The translations under genes and the position numbers were made by a program. The notes under the pieces were generated by a model that did no database searches, was not told where the DNA came from, and saw only the letters and a program-made list of their open reading frames with translations. From Rhodopila sp. (GTDB lineage Bacteria; Pseudomonadota; Alphaproteobacteria; Acetobacterales; Acetobacteraceae), in the NCBI GenBank assembly GCA_031291715.1, contig JARLIN010000431.1:1-37292 (forward strand): a stretch of 37,292 bases of DNA. The letters are read 5' to 3'. Positions 14,657-22,024 of the stretch are shown here, in pieces. How positions within the stretch are numbered: the stretch's first letter is position 1; each line of letters starts with the position of its first letter.

Positions 14657-16270
14657 TTACCGCCGCCGCCAGAGATTGGTGCCGGCCGAACTGAAGAACG
14701 AGAACAGCGCGTCCCCTGCGATCACACCGCCGGCGAACACTTCCATCACCGTGCGGCCGTCAGCCCCGCGAGCAGAAAGCCAGAGCTGGCGGCAGACGAT
14801 GCCGACGAGCACCGCCCAGCCGGCCAGCGGGGCCGCGATCAGCAGCCCGGTGGCGAACAGCACGCCAAGCTGGCGCCGCTGGCCGCCAAGCAGTTGCAGC
14901 AGCGCCCCCGGAATAGCCCAGAGCAGCATCGACATCGCCGCCGGGCCGGTTATGCCGGCCTTGATGGTGGCGGCGTAAACGCGATCGACCGGCGGAATCA
15001 GGTTCTGCGCGAAATAGCCCTGCCAGCTCAGGCCGACGACCACGATCGCCACCAGGAAGGCGGCCATCGCGGCATAGAGCTGCTGGCGGCGGCCATCCGC
15101 CTCGAACGCGGCACCATGACCGGCGCGCAGCATGAAGCCGGCCTTCAGGTCGTAGCCCATATCCGCGAAAGCCGGGCCCGTGGCGGCGGAAAATCCGACC
15201 AGCAGGGCCAGGGCGGGGACCGGAAAGCCGATCAGCACGCCGATCAGCAGCGTGATCAGGGCGATCGCGAAGGCCGGGAACCATCCGGAATGCATCGCCG
15301 CCAGCCCGACCAGCAATTCATGCACGAAGGCGGCGAACGCGGCGTAGAGCACGAAGGCGATCAACATGCCGATCGAAAGGTCGCTCATGAGCCCGCCGGC
15401 CAGCGCGATGCCGATCGCGATGCATAGATAGCCGGCGAAGCCGAAACCGAGCGTGCGGCCAACGCTGCGTGTGCCTACCCCGCTCGCATCGGCCTCGGCT
15501 TGGGTGTCGCGCCGGCAGATCACCACGCCCACCTGCAGCAGCGCCATCACCCCGGCACCGATCATGAAGCCATGCGGCACCAGGGCGGCGTTCAGATCAC
15601 CGCCCGGGAAGATGGATTGGAACGCCGGGCCGGAAAACAGGATCTTGGAATAGCCGCGCAGCAGCAAACCCACGCCGAACATCGCCAGCGCCCAGACATT
15701 GCCGATGAACGCAATGCCGAATGCCGACATCGGGATTCCGAACCACGAGCCGACAGCGCCCACACAGACCCCCACCCCAAGTATTGCCGCCTTGCGGCCG
15801 CCTTCGTCGCCGGCGCGGATCGCTTCCGCCGCCGCCACGCCGGGTGGCCAGGCGCCTTCGGCGGGGAACACCTTGCTGTCGAACATGCGATACAGCAGGA
15901 ACGCGTCCAGCAGCATCGCGCAGGCCACGCCCGCGAACATCGGCAGGATCAGATCGGCACGGCCCAGCACGAACGGAATGCCGATCGGCAGCAGCAGGCT
16001 GTTCGCCGCGCCAAAGGTCGCGGCCGAGATCGCGCTTTGCGCCAGATTCTGCACATGCACGGATCGGTAACGACGGAACAGGCTCAGCGGGATGCGCGCC
16101 AACCCGATCGCCGCGAGCGCGCCGACCAGGGCGGTGTTGGGCGTCACGCCCAGCGTGGTCAGCAATTGCAAGCCGATGATCGCCCCGAACACCGACAAGA
16201 TCAGTACCAGGATCAGCGTCGCCGGCTCGAACAGGCGCGGGTGCACCTCAATGTCCGGAATCTGGTTCAT
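14657..16270 (-). CDS. OPT/YSL family transporter
   Basis: This 537-residue, strongly hydrophobic inner-membrane protein has roughly 14-16 predicted membrane segments. It begins MNQIPDIEVHPRLFEPATLI and contains PVPALALLVGFSAATGPAFA and the conserved DMGYDLKAGFMLRAGH segment, typical of the bacterial OPT/YSL branch. OPT carriers take up oligopeptides, modified amino acids or metal chelates with protons. The ATG at 16270 overlaps the aroM stop by four bases (ATGA), giving a coupled aroM-transporter operon. In context the cargo is probably the substrate of the DUF917 and hydantoinase-type enzymes encoded divergently at 18.1-20.7 kb, but the sequence does not identify it. Confidence 0.87.
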   Translation of the reverse strand: MNQIPDIEVHPRLFEPATLILVLILSVFGAIIGLQLLTTLGVTPNTALVGALAAIGLARIPLSLFRRYRSVHVQNLAQSAISAATFGAANSLLLPIGIPFVLGRADLILPMFAGVACAMLLDAFLLYRMFDSKVFPAEGAWPPGVAAAEAIRAGDEGGRKAAILGVGVCVGAVGSWFGIPMSAFGIAFIGNVWALAMFGVGLLLRGYSKILFSGPAFQSIFPGGDLNAALVPHGFMIGAGVMALLQVGVVICRRDTQAEADASGVGTRSVGRTLGFGFAGYLCIAIGIALAGGLMSDLSIGMLIAFVLYAAFAAFVHELLVGLAAMHSGWFPAFAIALITLLIGVLIGFPVPALALLVGFSAATGPAFADMGYDLKAGFMLRAGHGAAFEADGRRQQLYAAMAAFLVAIVVVGLSWQGYFAQNLIPPVDRVYAATIKAGITGPAAMSMLLWAIPGALLQLLGGQRRQLGVLFATGLLIAAPLAGWAVLVGIVCRQLWLSARGADGRTVMEVFAGGVIAGDALFSFFSSAGTNLWRRR

Positions 16271-16932
16271 GACAGCACCAGATCGATCGCGTGCGCCACC
16301 AGCCGGCGCGACACCAGCACCGGCCGTCCGGAAGCCTGCTTCACCACCTGCCGCATCGCCTCGGAGTAGCCGATGCAGTGCATCACGATGATGTCGGTGT
16401 CCGCGAGGGAGGCAGCGGCTTCGCGCAAGGCAGCCTCGTTACCCGCCAGATACGGCGAGGCACTGGCGGCCTTCGTCTCGACACCGGGAATGCCGTGGAA
16501 CTCCTCGATCTGCACCGCATTCGGCAGCAGGATGCCGATCCGTTGGGCGCCGTAGGCCAGGCCTTGCACGAAATGATCGACCGTGTGCTGCGGCTCGATG
16601 AACGGTGTGCGCAGAGTGAAGCGGGAGAACTCGCCGGTGCACAGCAGCACCAGCAGGTCGAAGCCGCCTTCGTCCAATTCCGCCAGGATCTCGTGCAGCC
16701 GGCGGTCGATCGCCGGCTTGCCCAGCAGCACCTCGCGCCCGTCGCGCAGGCGGGAGACCAGGCGCTCCTCGCCCGGACGTGGGGCCAGCGCGGCGATGGC
16801 GGCGTCGTCCAGCCCGTCCAGCGCACCGCGCTCGGTGACTTCGAACCGCACGCGGGTTTCCGCCAGGATATCCGGCATCACGTCGCTGCGCGGCGATTGG
16901 CCGATGGTGACGAAAGCAACGCGCGGCAGCAT
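16267..16932 (-). CDS. AroM family protein
   Basis: This 221-residue soluble protein belongs to the AroM family, related in fold to Asp/Glu/hydantoin racemases. It begins MLPRVAFVTIGQSPRSDVMP (the TIG..P..DV.P signature), then has FDLLVLLCTGEFSRFTLRTP and a C-terminal IIVMHCIGYSEAMRQVV with the Cys that racemase-like members often place near this point. The biochemical role of AroM is unknown even in E. coli. A GGAG lies about eight bases before the ATG at 16932. It is first in the aroM-OPT operon, and a perfect 8-4-8 palindrome lies 57 bp upstream of its start. It is a paralogue of the AroM half of the neighbouring fusion. Confidence 0.9.
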   Translation of the reverse strand: MLPRVAFVTIGQSPRSDVMPDILAETRVRFEVTERGALDGLDDAAIAALAPRPGEERLVSRLRDGREVLLGKPAIDRRLHEILAELDEGGFDLLVLLCTGEFSRFTLRTPFIEPQHTVDHFVQGLAYGAQRIGILLPNAVQIEEFHGIPGVETKAASASPYLAGNEAALREAAASLADTDIIVMHCIGYSEAMRQVVKQASGRPVLVSRRLVAHAIDLVLS

Positions 16933-16983
16933 GGCTGGCTCCGATTTGGCGATGACGGTCCTACGATATGCTGCCTATCCGGC

Positions 16984-17009
16984 GGGCAACATACGTGCCG
17001 CCACGTATG
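16984..17009 (-). promoter_or_regulatory. LuxR-box-like palindrome next to a candidate -35 of the aroM-OPT operon
   Basis: CATACGTG-CCGC-CACGTATG (16990-17009) is a perfect 20-bp inverted repeat, the length and symmetry of a LuxR-family dimer site. On the minus strand it is directly followed by TTGCCC (16984-16989), a fair -35, with a weaker TATCGT at 16963-16968 (15-bp spacing). The layout fits an activator bound just upstream of -35. The adjacent AroM-LuxR protein is the obvious candidate (inference). Confidence 0.6.
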
Positions 17010-17052
17010 CCGACTGAACTGTCGGCGGGAAATTGCCGTGAAACGCGGCAGA

Positions 17053-18033
17053 TCAGGCGCCCGGCGTGTGGAGGATCAGGACACGGCGGATCAGTTCGGC
17101 GGGGGAGGCCGCCTCCAGCTTGCTCATTGCCCGTGCACGATGGATTTCCACCGTGCGATGGCTGATCCCGAGCCGACGGCCGATCAGCTTGTTGGCCTCG
17201 CCATCCAGCACGCCGCACAGCACCTGCCGCTCACGTGGCGTCAGCGGCACGGCCGGGGGTGGGAGGCGATCAATCAGCGCCTCGCCTCGCAGCGGCGCGG
17301 ACGATGCGCCGATCGGCGCGACGCTGGGTGCGGGGGCCAGTTCGGTCAGGTGCAGCCGCATCGCGCCGGCGATGATCCTGCGCGCCGTGACCACCGGCTT
17401 GCCTGTGGCGGCTGCGATGCGGCGGGCATTCGCCTCCGTATAGCCGACCGAGTGCATCAGGATCAGCTCGGCCTCGCCCAGCCGGGCTGCCGCATCTTCC
17501 AGCCGCGCTGTGTCCCCGGTGGCGGCGACCGCGCGGGCGTTCTGGATCAGCGTGCCATGGCCGGGCATCTCGGCCTGCTGCGCCAGCGGATAGATCACGC
17601 CGATCCGGCAATCCCCCACCACCAGGGCGGCGATCCAGGCATCAACAGCGCGCTGGCCATGCACCAGCGGGGTACGGAGCGAAAACGGCTGGAAGACGCC
17701 TGTCGTGATCAGCACAATCAGGTCGAAGCCGGCGCCATCGAGGCGGTTCAGGAGTGCCCCCAGCCGGTCGACAACGAAGCCGGCTTCCACCTCGACATGG
17801 CCGCCGTCGCGCAGGCGGGTGTAGAGCCGCCTGTCCCGCGGCCGCCCCGTCCGCAACGCGATCTCCGCCGGCGTCAGCCCGTCGAGCGCGCCGAACTCCT
17901 CGTAATCGGCCGCGCCGTCCAGCATACCCATGATGTCCGGCACCACATCCGGGCGCGGCGCCTGGCCAATGGTGACGAAGGCGATGCGGGGCGCCGTGCG
18001 GGGTGTGGCGTCGCGCTCGCCGCCACGGGGCAT
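17053..18033 (-). CDS. AroM domain fused to a LuxR-type helix-turn-helix (putative regulator)
   Basis: In this 326-residue protein, residues 16-228 form an AroM domain (RIAFVTIGQAPRPDVVPDIM; FDLIVLITTGVFQPFSLRTP; LILMHSVGYTEANARRIAAA). After a Pro/Ala-rich linker comes a complete LuxR/FixJ-type DNA-binding domain (264-320): LTPRERQVLCGVLDGEANKL, IGRRLGISHRTVEIHRARAM, SKLEAASPAELIRRVL. The natural reading is a transcription factor whose AroM part senses a ligand. It lies between the aroM-OPT operon and the divergent DUF917-hydantoinase operon, so it probably controls both. I chose the ATG at 18033; the frame is open to 18159 but that would overlap the divergent DUF917 start. The exact start is uncertain because no strong ribosome site is seen. 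Confidence 0.88.
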   Translation of the reverse strand: MPRGGERDATPRTAPRIAFVTIGQAPRPDVVPDIMGMLDGAADYEEFGALDGLTPAEIALRTGRPRDRRLYTRLRDGGHVEVEAGFVVDRLGALLNRLDGAGFDLIVLITTGVFQPFSLRTPLVHGQRAVDAWIAALVVGDCRIGVIYPLAQQAEMPGHGTLIQNARAVAATGDTARLEDAAARLGEAELILMHSVGYTEANARRIAAATGKPVVTARRIIAGAMRLHLTELAPAPSVAPIGASSAPLRGEALIDRLPPPAVPLTPRERQVLCGVLDGEANKLIGRRLGISHRTVEIHRARAMSKLEAASPAELIRRVLILHTPGA

Positions 18034-18081
18034 CCGTAAGGGCTCGCCCGTATAGGCGTCCGGCAGGGGCGCCGGTAACGT

Positions 18082-18097
18082 CCCGATCGAAATCGGG
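18082..18097. promoter_or_regulatory. Palindrome in the divergent regulator/DUF917 intergenic region
   Basis: CCCGAT-CGAA-ATCGGG is a perfect 6-4-6 inverted repeat ending 13 bases before the DUF917 start and 48 bp from the regulator start. It could be an autoregulatory operator or a hairpin near the DUF917 ribosome site. It does not share sequence with the 16990-17009 palindrome. Confidence 0.45.
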
Positions 18098-18110
18098 TCG
18101 GGACCAGCGG

Positions 18111-19211
18111 ATGCGGCAGATCGAGCGGGACGAGTTGGAGCCATTGGCGACCGGGGCATGGATCCTGGGAACCGGGGGCGGAGGGTCTCCCTACCTCTCT
18201 TATCTCAACATGCGCAAACTCTACGCCGAGGGCACGCGGGTCAAACTGATGGACCCGGCCGACCTCGCCGATGACGCGCTGGTCGCGGTGGTTTCCAACA
18301 TGGGGGCGCCGCTGGTCGGCCAGGAACGCCTGTCCGATCCCGCCTTCGCCGCCAAGCCGGTGCGGATGATGGAGGAATATCTCGGCCGCCCCTTCACCGC
18401 CGTGATGTCGGTGGAGATCGGCGGCGGCAACGCCTTCCAGCCGCTTTTGGTGGCGGCGATGACCGGCCTGCCGGTGGTCGATGCCGATGCCATGGGCCGC
18501 GCCTATCCGGAAGCGCAGATGACCAGCTTCGCCATCGCCGATCTGCCGATGTTCCCGCTGACGCTCGCCGACATCCGCGACAACGAGGTGATCGTCGCCC
18601 GCGCCGCGAGCTGGAAATGGATGGAGCGGATCAGCCGAAAGGTGTGCACCGAGGTCGGCTCGATCGCCGCCACCTGCAAGGCGCCGCGCACCGGCGCCGA
18701 GGTGAAGGCGCACGGCATCCTCTACACCACCACGCAGGCGATCGCGCTTGGGCGGGAGGTGCGCCGCGCCCGCCATGCGCATGAGGACCCGGTCGCCGCC
18801 ACCCTGGCCGCCGCGAAGGGCAAGCTGCTGTTCCGCGGCAAGGTCTCCGACGTGCAGCGCCGCGCCACCGAGGGCTTTCTGCGCGGCAACGCCCGGATCG
18901 ATGGTATCGACGACGACCGTGGGGCCCGCTTCGAGGTCGCGTTCCAGAACGAATACGCCGTCGGCTGGCGCGACGGCCGGGTGATCGTGACCACGCCCGA
19001 CCTGATCTGCGTGCTCGACAGCGTCTCCGGCGAGGCGATCGGCACCGAGAGCCTGCGCTACGGCCAGCGCGTCAGCGTGATCGCGCTGCCGGCCCCGGCG
19101 ATCCTGCGCACGCCGAAAGGGATCGCTCATGTCGGCCCGCGCGCCTTCGGCCATGACACGGACTACGTGACCGTCTTCGGCGACGGCGCAGCGACGGAGC
19201 AGTTTTCATGA
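18111..19211 (+). CDS. DUF917 family protein (S-methyl thiohydantoin desulfurase-like)
   Basis: This 366-residue protein matches the DUF917 family in length and sequence: LATGAWILGTGGGGSPYLSY near the start, then VSNMGAPLVGQERL, VEIGGGNAFQPLLVAA, VVDADAMGRAYPEAQMTSFA, and a C-terminal VTTPDLICVLDSVSGEAIGT. Members sit next to hydantoinase/oxoprolinase genes and are thought to act on cyclic amides or thiohydantoins; the reaction here is unknown. I chose the ATG at 18111 (MRQIERDELEPLATGAW), which agrees with the family length; its ribosome site is weak. The last four bases overlap the next gene (ATGA at 19208-19211), so the two are translationally coupled. Confidence 0.9.
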   Translation: MRQIERDELEPLATGAWILGTGGGGSPYLSYLNMRKLYAEGTRVKLMDPADLADDALVAVVSNMGAPLVGQERLSDPAFAAKPVRMMEEYLGRPFTAVMSVEIGGGNAFQPLLVAAMTGLPVVDADAMGRAYPEAQMTSFAIADLPMFPLTLADIRDNEVIVARAASWKWMERISRKVCTEVGSIAATCKAPRTGAEVKAHGILYTTTQAIALGREVRRARHAHEDPVAATLAAAKGKLLFRGKVSDVQRRATEGFLRGNARIDGIDDDRGARFEVAFQNEYAVGWRDGRVIVTTPDLICVLDSVSGEAIGTESLRYGQRVSVIALPAPAILRTPKGIAHVGPRAFGHDTDYVTVFGDGAATEQFS

Positions 19212-20740
19212 GGCGCATCGGGATCGATGTCGGCGGCACCAACACGGATGCGGTGCTGATCGACGGCAGCCGTGTCCTGGGCGCGGTCAAGACCAACACC
19301 ACCGCCGATGTGCTGGGTGGCGTGCGCACCGCGCTGGACAAATTGCTGGCGCAGACCGCGGATGATCCCGGCACCATCGCGGCGGTGGTGATCGGCACCA
19401 CCCATTTCACCAACGCGGTGATCGAGCGGCGCGCCTTGCAGCGCGTCGGCGCGCTGCGCATCGGCCTGCCCGCCAGCGCCAGCCTGCCGCCGTTCATCGA
19501 CTGGCCCGAGGATCTGGCCGCCATGGTGCGCGGCGAAGTGCATATGGTGGCCGGTGGGCATGAATATGACGGCCGCCCGATCGTGCCGCTGGACCTTGGC
19601 GCCATTCGCGATGCCGCACGCCGCATGGCCGATGCCGGCCTCACATCCGTTGGCGTCACCAGCGTGTTCTCCCCCCTGACCGCCGAATGTGAGCAGGAGG
19701 CCGGGCGAATCCTGGCCGAGGAGATGCCGGGGGTCGCTATAACCCTGTCGCATGAGCTGGGCCGGATCGGGCTGCTGGAGCGCGAGAACGTCACCTTGCT
19801 GAATGCCTGCCTGCAGGACCTGGCGCAAAAGACGGTGGCCGCGTTCACCGAGGCGTTGCGCAGCAGCGGCCTCACCGCTCCGCTTTACCTGACGCAGAAC
19901 GACGGCACCATCATGCGCGCCGAGACCGCCAGCCGCTTCCCGGTCTGGTGCTTCGCCTCCGGCCCGACCAACAGCATGCGCGGGGCGGCCTTCCTGTCCG
20001 GGCTGGACGACGGTGTTGTCGTCGATGTCGGCGGCACGACCAGCGATATCGGCTACCTGAAGGGCGGCTTCCCGCGTGAGGCCAATGCGGCGGTGGAGAT
20101 CGGCGGCGTGCGGACGCTGTTCCGGATGCCCGATCTGCTTTCAATCGGGCTGGGCGGCGGCACGGAGATAAGCGCCGACGGCAGCCGCATCGGCCCGCGC
20201 AGCGTCGGGTTCCGGTTGCTGCAGAAGGGCCTGCTGTTTGGCGGCGACACGCTGACCGCGACCGACATCGCCTGCGCGGCGGGCCGCACCGATCTTGGCG
20301 ATCGGTCTCTGGTGGAAGGTTTGTCGCCCGGGCTCGTTGCGCGCACGCTGGCGCGCATGGGCGAGATGATCGCCGAGGGCGTCGATCGCATGAAGACCGA
20401 GGCCGGCGATGTGCCGTTGCTGGCGGTCGGCGGCGGCAGCTTCCTGATCCCCGACGAGGTCGAGGGCTGCAGCGAGGTGATCCGCGTGGAACACCATGCG
20501 GTGGCCAATGCGGTCGGGGCCGCGATCGCCCAGGCGAGCGGCGAAGTCGATCATATCTTTTCCAATCTGACCCGCGACCAGGCCGTCGCGGCGGCGCAGA
20601 CCGAGGCGGAAAGCCGCGCGGTCGCCGCCGGCGCACGGCGGGAGAGTCTCAAGCTGGTCGAGTTGGAGGATATCCCCCTGTCCTACCTGCCGGGAGATGC
20701 CCGCCGGGTTCGCGTCCGGATGGTGGGTGATATCGGCTGA
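19208..20740 (+). CDS. Hydantoinase/oxoprolinase family protein, HyuA-type
   Basis: This 510-residue protein has the actin-like ATPase fold of the hydantoinase A/5-oxoprolinase family, which opens cyclic amides (hydantoins, 5-oxoproline) with ATP. Motifs are RRIGIDVGGTNTDAVLIDG (phosphate loop, 2-20), VVIGTTHFTNAVIERRAL, LLERENVTLLNACLQDLAQ, the second phosphate loop VVVDVGGTTSDIGYL, SIGLGGGTEI, and LLAVGGGSFLIPDEV. At 510 residues it is the short type seen beside DUF917, not the 690-residue HyuA that pairs with HyuB. No HyuB-like gene is present. It ends the plus-strand operon; no clear terminator follows, but a tandem repeat starts 17 bases later. Confidence 0.92.
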   Translation: MRRIGIDVGGTNTDAVLIDGSRVLGAVKTNTTADVLGGVRTALDKLLAQTADDPGTIAAVVIGTTHFTNAVIERRALQRVGALRIGLPASASLPPFIDWPEDLAAMVRGEVHMVAGGHEYDGRPIVPLDLGAIRDAARRMADAGLTSVGVTSVFSPLTAECEQEAGRILAEEMPGVAITLSHELGRIGLLERENVTLLNACLQDLAQKTVAAFTEALRSSGLTAPLYLTQNDGTIMRAETASRFPVWCFASGPTNSMRGAAFLSGLDDGVVVDVGGTTSDIGYLKGGFPREANAAVEIGGVRTLFRMPDLLSIGLGGGTEISADGSRIGPRSVGFRLLQKGLLFGGDTLTATDIACAAGRTDLGDRSLVEGLSPGLVARTLARMGEMIAEGVDRMKTEAGDVPLLAVGGGSFLIPDEVEGCSEVIRVEHHAVANAVGAAIAQASGEVDHIFSNLTRDQAVAAAQTEAESRAVAAGARRESLKLVELEDIPLSYLPGDARRVRVRMVGDIG

Positions 20741-21181: not shown

Positions 21182-22009
21182 CTAGGTTTTCCCGCCAAGC
21201 GCCTGCGAGACCCGCGCCGCGCGGCCGTGCAGGTCTTCCCCGATCTTCGTGAGGCCGACGCGCCGCATCTGCTCGCTGACACCGACGACGACCAGCGCGT
21301 TGATTGATCCGTTCGGCATCCGGACGGGTGCCGCGACGATGCTCACGCCGCGGATATACTGCCCGTCGTCGATGGCATAACCCGCCAGGCGCGCGGCATG
21401 CACCTCCGCGCGCCACGCCGCCAGCGTCGGGGGAACGTCCCATCGCAACTTGCTGAAGCGTGCCTGAATCTCCGCCCAGGGGTGGCTGCCGAACGCGGCG
21501 ACGCAGCGACCCGTCGCGCTGATGAGCGCCGGGAATCGGCTGCCGATGTCCACGTGCACCCGCAACGGTGAATCGGCACGCGCGAGGGCGACGACGACCA
21601 TGTGCTCCAGCCCGCTCGCCTCGACAGCGATCGCCGTCGCGCCATAGGTTTCCGCCAACTCATCAAGGTCGGGCTGAACCGCCGCCGGAAACGTGTGCTG
21701 GCGTAACGCCGAACGCGCCAAAGCAACGAGCCCCGCGGCGACGCCGTATTTCTTGGTCGCCTGATCCACCGCCACGAGATGCTCCGCGACCAGCACGCGC
21801 AAAATGTGCAGGCACGTACTGGGCACGAGGTCGAGCGCCCGGGCGATCGCATGCACGCCCAGCGGTTCGTCGCTCCGCCCCAGCAGGCGAAGGATCGCGA
21901 TCCCGCGCGAGAGCGCCGGAACCTGCCTGATCCGTGCTGCCTTCTTCGCCGGCTCGGGCTGCGCGGAACGATCCTTGGCCGAAGCCTTCTGTTTCTCGAT
22001 CGCGTTCAT
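21182..22009 (-). CDS. IclR family transcriptional regulator
   Basis: This 275-residue regulator has an N-terminal winged helix (LSRGIAILRLLGRSDEPLGV, HAIARALDLVPSTCLHILRV) and the C-terminal ligand-binding domain of the IclR family (LDELAETYGATAIAVEASGL, LISATGRCVAAFG, GYAIDDGQYIRGVSIVAAPV). A basic, Lys/Ala-rich extension of about 35 residues precedes the DNA-binding domain. I chose the ATG at 22009, which follows AAGGA by four bases; a TTG at 22024 is a weaker alternative. It is divergent from the periplasmic binding protein gene (about 140 bp apart) and probably controls it together with the acyl-CoA synthetase operon at 26.2 kb, whose promoter has a similar palindrome. Confidence 0.92.
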   Translation of the reverse strand: MNAIEKQKASAKDRSAQPEPAKKAARIRQVPALSRGIAILRLLGRSDEPLGVHAIARALDLVPSTCLHILRVLVAEHLVAVDQATKKYGVAAGLVALARSALRQHTFPAAVQPDLDELAETYGATAIAVEASGLEHMVVVALARADSPLRVHVDIGSRFPALISATGRCVAAFGSHPWAEIQARFSKLRWDVPPTLAAWRAEVHAARLAGYAIDDGQYIRGVSIVAAPVRMPNGSINALVVVGVSEQMRRVGLTKIGEDLHGRAARVSQALGGKT

Positions 22010-22010
22010 A

Positions 22011-22024
22011 TTGTCCTTATACAA
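22011..22024. promoter_or_regulatory. Candidate IclR operator overlapping its own translation start region
   Basis: TTGTCCTTATACAA is an imperfect palindrome resembling the perfect TTGTCTATAGACAA at 26300-26313 (10 of 14 positions). It overlaps the iclR ribosome site, which would suit autorepression. The same intergenic region holds GCAACGTTGC (22059-22068) and two GACAACA motifs (22073-22079, 22094-22100), the second within TTGACAACA, a nonamer also present at the 26.2-kb promoter. Confidence 0.4.

What the first reader, a model, noticed from the sequence alone, without database searches (positions are those of the whole stretch)
14657..20740. AroM-LuxR fusion regulator inside an OPT carrier / AroM / DUF917 / hydantoinase block
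Seen: residues 16-228 of the 17053-18033 protein align by eye with AroM (TIGQAPRPDVVP, ITTGVFQPFSLRTP), and residues 264-320 are a full LuxR/FixJ-type DNA-binding domain. A second, stand-alone AroM is coupled to an OPT/YSL carrier on one side, and DUF917 is coupled to a short HyuA-type enzyme on the other. Known: AroM has no settled function and is related to Asp/Glu/hydantoin racemases; DUF917 and HyuA relatives act on cyclic amides. Inference: the AroM domain binds the imported substrate or a product and switches both operons, which would give AroM a sensing role, with the stand-alone copy as enzyme or co-sensor.
Basis: partly seen in the sequence, partly recalled or inferred. Interest (0 to 1): 0.82.

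Follow-up and report, generated by a model that had tools for sequence, protein, structure and literature searches.

The report
Dead racemase turned gene switch
A bacterial regulator seems to have been made by fusing an enzyme-like domain of unknown function, now stripped of its reactive residues, to a DNA-binding domain, and it probably switches import and breakdown genes for a peptide-like or hydantoin-like nutrient through a palindromic DNA site.

Summary
The fusion is real: window 17053-18033 (-) encodes AroM (PF07302, 5e-46) plus a LuxR/FixJ-type HTH (GerE, 4e-17). It is no assembly error: I kept 22 non-redundant full-length fusions, which form one side of a branch on the AroM tree (SH-aLRT 94). 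Two results go further. (1) None of the 22 fused AroM domains has either cysteine of the racemase pair; of 37 stand-alone AroMs, 30 have both and 7 only the second. The fused copy is thus probably a dead sensor and the stand-alone copy an enzyme. (2) An 18-bp palindrome, ATAcGkG-N4-CmCgTAT, derived without the window, has its two best hits in the 37 kb in exactly the two promoters proposed: 16991-17008 (AroM-OPT) and 18036-18053 (DUF917-HyuA). In relatives, 22 of 23 held-out hits of about 13 bits or more lie before system genes. Caution: 3 of 17 control loci with other LuxR-type HTHs also carry such palindromes, so the site may belong to an HTH type rather than to this family alone. Best reading: a one-component regulator with a new input domain. 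Ligand, binding and sign are untested.

The parts
17053..18033 (-). AroM-LuxR fusion regulator (326 aa): AroM domain res 17-223, low-confidence linker about res 236-245, LuxR/FixJ-type HTH res 263-316
   Evidence: Pfam; AF2 model; Foldseek
16267..16932 (-). stand-alone AroM (221 aa) with both racemase-type Cys (LLCTG, MHCIGY); likely enzyme
   Evidence: Pfam; alignments; AF2; Foldseek
14657..16270 (-). OPT/YSL-type carrier, 4-base overlap with AroM
   Evidence: Pfam PF03169
18111..19211 (+). DUF917 (now S-Me-THD_N/C, thiohydantoin-desulfurase-like)
   Evidence: Pfam; NCBIfam (116 bits, cut-off 450); start codon
19208..20740 (+). short HyuA-type protein (Hydant_A_N + first part of Hydantoinase_A), 4-base overlap with DUF917
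   Evidence: Pfam; PDB relatives N-methylhydantoinase 7hk5 and 5-oxoprolinase 6yra
16991..17008 (.). predicted operator 1, ATACGTG-CCGC-CACGTAT (perfect arms), centre 68 bp upstream of the AroM start codon
   Evidence: PWM without window sites 20.8 bits, rank 1 in window; de novo EM without window 21.3 bits; sequence
18036..18053 (.). predicted operator 2, GTAAGGG-CTCG-CCCGTAT, centre 66 bp upstream of the DUF917 ATG and 2 bp upstream of the fusion's ATG
   Evidence: PWM 14.5 bits, rank 2 in window; EM 14.3 bits; sequence

Best explanation
A one-component transcription regulator made by fusing a racemase-fold AroM domain to a LuxR/FixJ-type DNA-binding domain. The AroM part lacks both catalytic-type cysteines but keeps the fold and much of the conserved core, so it probably binds a substrate or product without turning it over. 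As a dimer the protein binds the 18-bp palindrome ATAcGkG-N4-CmCgTAT in front of AroM-OPT (import plus stand-alone AroM enzyme) and in front of DUF917-HyuA (ring or amide cleavage), most likely activating both when the imported compound is present, and limiting its own expression through the site that abuts its start codon. Shown by sequence: fusion, conservation, one group on the tree, absent cysteines, palindromes and their positions. Inferred: ligand binding, dimerisation, the pairing of this protein with this site, activation, and the ligand class (peptide-derived cyclic amide, hydantoin or diketopiperazine-like).
For: Domains: window; 6 of 6 further fusions scanned carry AroM + GerE above cut-off. 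Cysteines: 0 of 22 fusions have either Cys (SS 16, TS 2, MS 2, SA 2); 30 of 37 stand-alone have both, 7 of 37 only the second. The two AroM Cys align with the Cys pair of Asp/Glu racemases (weak: probability 12.7%, E 0.0023). Folds match hydantoin racemase, arylmalonate decarboxylase, maleate isomerase and allantoin racemase. One side of a branch, SH-aLRT 94. Linkage: DUF917 14 of 22, divergent and adjacent 12 of 22, short HyuA or HyuAB 20 of 22, stand-alone AroM 13 of 22, SBP_bac_5 or OPT 19 of 22 within 8 kb; within 1.5 kb, DUF917 or HyuA in 19 of 22 (distances) against 0 of 17 LuxR-HTH control loci of about 3 kb. Palindrome: EM without the window scores 50.8 against 40 shuffles (mean 35.6, sd 2.7, max 44.2); its top two window hits are the two promoters. 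Held-out hits of about 13 bits or more: 21 of 21 before system genes in the 24 loci; with the frame-split copy L086, 22 of 23. In the 21 fusion loci, 25 hits above 13 bits (9 of them training sites) against 1.2 expected from shuffles. L090, a second OPT-AroM/DUF917/HyuA locus of a genome whose fusion lies 0.33 Mb away, has sites of 18.0 and 13.3 bits.
Against: No binding, expression or ligand data. The palindrome is not exclusive: 3 of 17 control loci with other LuxR-type HTHs (L024, L027, L031) hold 5 hits of 14.2-15.6 bits where shuffles expect 0.24, so related LuxR-type regulators may read the same kind of site, and one of them could act on these promoters. Further hits outside system promoters: one inside HyuAB of L086 (13.6 bits), C109 of the own genome (13.2), L099 1.4 kb from an AroM without fusion (13.1). 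Sites in 3 of 21 loci are weak (L039 11.9, L080 9.5, L084 10.3 bits), a level at which shuffles give 14 hits per 415 kb. L089, with a broken piece of the fusion, has no site above 9 bits. In 8 of 22 fusions no DUF917 lies within 8 kb. Branch support of 94 is just under the tool's star threshold and the tree is unrooted. Operator 2 lies 2 bp before the fusion's ATG, leaving no room for a ribosome-binding site. An IclR gene (21182-22024) is near. E. coli-type AroM also lacks the first Cys.
Confidence: 0.77

Rival explanations
1. The fusion is the regulator of the block but a repressor released by ligand rather than an activator.
For: Operator 2 abuts the fusion's start codon; in G358, G280, Shinella, Ketogulonicigenium and L040 the site centre also lies within 16 bp of the estimated fusion start, typical of autorepression.
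Against: Distances from site centre to the estimated enzyme or importer starts are 52-130 bp in 25 of 30 pairs (the rest 176-211), which leaves room for an activator box upstream of a -35 region; LuxR/FixJ-type regulators are mostly activators (recalled).
Confidence: 0.25
2. The palindrome is mainly the site of another regulator (another LuxR-type protein or the IclR) and the fusion controls something else.
For: No direct pairing of protein and site is shown; other LuxR-HTH loci also hold such palindromes (3 of 17); the own genome has further LuxR-type HTHs close to this one; an IclR gene lies 0.4 kb beyond HyuA, and IclR genes neighbour some AroM operons (L054, L056; L106, L107).
Against: Nine longer loci with AroM but no fusion (L054-L056, L087, L088, L104-L107) have best scores of only 6.4-10.7 bits (for the four plasmids the host chromosome was not checked) and 12 of 13 shorter ones stay at 11.0 or less, while L090, whose genome has the fusion elsewhere, has 18.0. 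That palindromes also occur near related HTHs fits the fusion's HTH as their reader.
Confidence: 0.15
3. The fused AroM domain is still an enzyme with another mechanism, so the protein is a bifunctional trigger enzyme.
For: 37 positions are invariant between 8 fused and 5 stand-alone AroMs; arylmalonate decarboxylase, a near fold match, works with one Cys (recalled).
Against: Neither cysteine is present in any of 22 fusions, while the second is present in 37 of 37 stand-alone AroMs.
Confidence: 0.1
4. Gene-prediction or assembly artefact joining two genes.
For: The genome is a draft in 545 contigs; one relative (L041/L086) is split between frames.
Against: 22 uninterrupted full-length fusions.
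Confidence: 0.01

Closest known systems
BzdR (shikimate-kinase-like effector domain + HTH), PMC3602430 (abstract and section list seen)
   Same: An enzyme-derived domain serves as effector-binding part of a transcription regulator; loss of enzyme activity was part of the proposed path
   Different: Different enzyme fold, HTH at the N-terminus, different pathway
LuxR solos and other one-component GerE-HTH regulators (search listing only)
   Same: N-terminal sensing domain plus C-terminal GerE HTH; palindromic site
   Different: Input domain is AroM, not an autoinducer-binding domain
AroM / DUF917 / hydantoin racemase / OPT genes near cyclodipeptide oxidases, PMC11055893 (passages seen)
   Same: The same enzyme and carrier families are reported enriched together; AroM predicted racemase-like
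   Different: The word LuxR does not occur in its main text; no nitroreductase among the 8 window proteins scanned
Asp/Glu/hydantoin racemase superfamily (2eq5, 2vlb, 2xed, 5lfd)
   Same: Fold of the AroM domain; the window's stand-alone AroM has the Cys pair
   Different: The fused domain lacks both Cys and carries an HTH

Membership tests
AroM family (PF07302) | match to the curated profile above cut-off | tested here: met
   157.3 bits against cut-off 23.8, res 17-223
LuxR/FixJ-type (GerE) DNA-binding family | match to the GerE profile above cut-off | tested here: met
   62.2 bits against 23.5, res 263-316
LuxR quorum-sensing regulators | autoinducer-binding domain at the N-terminus | tested here: not met
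   no such Pfam hit; AroM occupies the N-terminus
NarL/FixJ two-component response regulators | receiver domain | tested here: not met
   no receiver-domain hit
Asp/Glu/hydantoin racemases as active enzymes, fused domain | two catalytic cysteines | tested here: not met
   0 of 22 fusions have either Cys
Asp/Glu/hydantoin racemases, stand-alone AroM | two catalytic-type cysteines and racemase fold | tested here: met
   LLCTG and MHCIGY present; best Foldseek match 2eq5; activity not tested
S-methyl thiohydantoin desulfurase (NF058532), DUF917 protein | equivalog score cut-off of 450 bits | tested here: not met
   116.4 bits; same superfamily only
One-component regulator controlling its own locus | binding of the protein to promoters of neighbouring genes | tested here: inconclusive
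   sequence level only: palindromes in both window promoters and in relatives' promoters, but similar ones near other LuxR-type HTHs; binding not tested

The most novel reading that the evidence does not exclude
AroM-LuxR proteins are an undescribed alphaproteobacterial regulator family in which a racemase-like enzyme of the same pathway was duplicated, lost both catalytic cysteines and became the ligand sensor of that pathway. The sensor and the stand-alone AroM would bind the same compound, so ligand screening of the dead copy would reveal the substrate of the orphan AroM family.
Probability: 0.6. Interest if true: 0.82.

Novelty: new variant of a known kind. Interest (0 to 1): 0.74.

Why it matters
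AroM is named after an E. coli gene and has no settled function; PMC11055893 calls the family experimentally uncharacterised. A regulator that uses a dead AroM as sensor gives a direct route to its ligand (binding assays on the sensor) and hence to the role of AroM, DUF917 and the short HyuA proteins. It also adds a natural case of an enzyme becoming a gene switch, with a stand-alone AroM nearby in 13 of 22 loci, the window included, a candidate operator and a predicted regulon.

Tried and rejected
Assembly error or frameshift: rejected. A third AroM in the own genome (C15): it is an Asp/Glu racemase-type protein (PF01177 174.6 bits, AroM 25.8). Third genome match of the IUPAC pattern (C109:245-260; 13.2 bits): it lies before a frame I recognise from recall as HpnK-like; probably unrelated, not tested further. 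AroM profile against PDB sequences: no relative at E 0.001 or better (best 0.09). Literature: searches (listings only, open-licence PMC) showed no title or abstract on an AroM-HTH fusion; PMC11055893 is the paper I found that links AroM, DUF917 and OPT. Recent horizontal transfer: 18 of 18 listed same-genus genomes lack a match at 1e-20, but block GC (0.67-0.69) is near the rest of the window (0.60-0.69), so composition gives no support.

For the motif EM, G280 and G688 were left out as near copies. The first EM run, from which the nine training sites were taken, included the window; the run did not. One search scanned the 21 fusion loci plus L040, L042, L090; L086 and L089 were scanned later.
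Full report
Observation. The frame at 17053-18033 (-) is one uninterrupted protein of 326 aa. Its neighbours are a stand-alone AroM and an OPT carrier read in the same direction, and DUF917 (now S-Me-THD in Pfam) and a short HyuA read divergently. Both pairs overlap by 4 bases. The window is the whole contig C205 of a 545-contig genome.

The fusion is conserved. Full-length matches occur in 8 of 384 other genomes of the window's class, 7 of 394 other genomes of its order, 6 named or MAG records such as Tistlia, Acidisphaera, Rhodovarius and Roseomonas (L041 and the contig-edge pieces not counted), and 6 plasmid records of Shinella, Neorhizobium and Ketogulonicigenium, where the three looked at are annotated 'AroM family protein' or 'hypothetical protein'. 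The window's class is Alphaproteobacteria, inferred because genomes of its own family (G696, G485, G523, G601) share contig lengths with Acidisphaera, Rhodovarius, Roseomonas and Neoroseomonas records. In 369 genomes drawn from another class of the phylum (that of the unnamed G1071) there was no fusion; the one match is a stand-alone AroM. All 18 listed genomes of the window's own genus lack a match at 1e-20, so distribution is patchy. After removing duplicates, edge pieces and one frame-split copy I kept 22 fusions in 21 loci. Six of them, scanned with Pfam besides the window's, all show AroM plus GerE above cut-off.

Neighbourhood. Within 8 kb of the 22 fusions: DUF917 14 of 22 (divergent and adjacent in 12), short HyuA 13, short HyuA or full HyuAB 20, stand-alone AroM 13, dipeptide-type SBP_bac_5 17, OPT 3, SBP_bac_5 or OPT 19 (families of the queries). 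Within 1.5 kb DUF917 or HyuA stands in 19 of 22; 17 control loci of about 3 kb with a LuxR-type HTH but no AroM had 0 of 17. Two layouts exist: divergent DUF917-HyuA with a separate AroM-importer operon (window type), and fusion followed by AroM and/or HyuAB and a peptide importer (Roseomonas type, no DUF917 within 8 kb). Four plasmid AroM operons without a fusion nearby carry DUF1177 with peptide importers, peptidases or Asp/Glu racemases. This points to a peptide-derived substrate but does not identify it.

Dead enzyme domain. In a 59-row alignment 30 of 37 stand-alone AroMs have Cys at both racemase-type positions; the other 7 have only the second, and all come from one family (f199), one of whose genes is 71.7% identical in DNA to annotated E. 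coli aroM. None of the 22 fusions has either Cys: Ser, Thr or Met at the first position, Ser or Ala at the second (first seen). hhalign places the two AroM cysteines on the two conserved cysteines of Asp/Glu racemases, with low probability (12.7%, E 0.0023). AF2 models (fusion pLDDT 83.7, pTM 0.68; stand-alone 92.8, 0.88) match hydantoin racemase 2eq5, arylmalonate decarboxylase, maleate isomerase and allantoin racemase, and the fusion model also matches FixJ/VraR/NarL-type regulators through its HTH. Thirty-seven positions are invariant across 8 fused and 5 stand-alone AroMs, so the pocket may still bind a ligand. On a tree built without the two Cys columns the 22 fusions are one side of a branch (SH-aLRT 94; unrooted) next to alphaproteobacterial stand-alone AroMs: a single fusion event with loss of both cysteines is the simplest reading.

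Palindrome. By eye, then by a palindromic motif search, regions upstream of the fusions share an 18-bp inverted repeat, ATAcGkG-N4-CmCgTAT. With the window left out (19 sequences) the search gives a log-likelihood ratio of 50.8 against 40 dinucleotide shuffles with mean 35.6, sd 2.7, max 44.2, and its two best hits in the 37-kb window are 16991-17008 (21.3 bits) and 18036-18053 (14.3 bits). A matrix from nine relatives' sites gives the same two (20.8 and 14.5 bits; third place 11.1). Their centres lie 68 and 66 bp upstream of the AroM and DUF917 start codons. In Roseomonas-type loci, not used for the matrix, the site has moved with the target: it sits between the fusion and the AroM/HyuAB operon (L079, L081, L082, L083). 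Of hits of about 13 bits or more not used in training, 21 of 21 in the 24 loci lie within -30 to 300 bp of an estimated start of a system gene; the frame-split copy L086 adds one before HyuAB and one inside HyuAB, 22 of 23 in all. In the 21 fusion loci there are 25 hits above 13 bits, 9 of them training sites, where shuffles predict 1.2. Nine longer loci with AroM but no fusion reach at most 10.7 bits and 12 of 13 shorter ones at most 11.0, the exception (L099, 13.1) lying 1.4 kb from its AroM. L090, a second OPT-AroM/DUF917/HyuA locus in a genome whose fusion lies 0.33 Mb away, has 18.0 and 13.3 bits.

Results against. Three of 17 control loci with other LuxR-type HTHs hold 5 hits of 14.2-15.6 bits (expected 0.24). 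So this kind of palindrome is probably read by several LuxR/FixJ-type proteins with a related HTH. That fits the fusion's HTH as reader of the sites, but it means that another such regulator could share them; I did not place these control sites relative to genes. Three fusion loci (L039, L080, L084) have only sites of 9.5-11.9 bits, which chance can give. L089, with a broken piece of the fusion, has none above 9 bits. C109 of the own genome has a 13.2-bit hit with no known link. Related loci are not independent, and the first motif run, which picked the nine sites, included the window.

Mechanism. Most likely the imported compound, or a product of AroM or DUF917-HyuA, binds the dead AroM domain; the dimeric HTH then binds the palindrome and activates import plus cleavage genes. 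The site touching the fusion's own start codon suggests autoregulation. Shown: anatomy, conservation, absent cysteines, palindromes and their placement. Inferred: ligand, dimerisation, that this protein binds this site, and sign.

Known or new. The enzyme and carrier families are reported enriched together near cyclodipeptide oxidases (PMC11055893, passages read), where AroM is called racemase-like and uncharacterised and LuxR is not mentioned. Enzyme-derived regulators are a known kind, with BzdR as a model (PMC3602430, abstract read). None of my searches (open-licence PMC only, listings) showed a paper on an AroM-HTH protein. I file it as a new variant of a known kind: a one-component LuxR/FixJ-HTH regulator with a new, dead-enzyme input domain.

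Noticed in passing
window 18080-18104: A second inverted repeat (CCCGAT-CGAA-ATCGGG inside GTCCCGA...TCGGGAC) between operator 2 and the DUF917 start; could be a hairpin or the site of another regulator (sequence).
   Followed up: no
L024 2125-2156, L027 974-991, L031 1850-1867 and 2338-2355: Palindromes of the same form near other LuxR-type HTH genes without AroM; this may be a site class shared by a wider group of LuxR/FixJ-type regulators.
   Followed up: partly
L092-L095, L097-L099: E. coli-type AroM lacks the first racemase-type Cys but keeps the second.
   Followed up: partly
L048 8890-17335: One genome (G342) carries two diverged AroM-LuxR fusions 6.4 kb apart, one beside AroM and DUF1177, the other beside DUF917-HyuA.
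   Followed up: partly
L106 4405-9014: A Klebsiella plasmid typed as conjugative carries an OPT-DUF1177-AroM-PepE-Asp/Glu racemase gene row between transposase genes.
   Followed up: no
L104 5963-8713: A Paenibacillus plasmid has dipeptide ABC-DUF1177-AroM genes directly beside phage structural genes.
   Followed up: no
L113 1105-2193: The own genome has a second, more distant DUF917 protein on contig C403, with no palindrome above 7 bits on that 4.3-kb contig.
   Followed up: partly
L035 5859-7917: In Acidisphaera a nitroreductase and a luciferase-like monooxygenase stand divergent to the fusion, where other loci have DUF917.
   Followed up: no
L041 7602-8950: The Falsiroseomonas tokyonensis fusion is split between frames (frameshift or sequencing error).
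   Followed up: no
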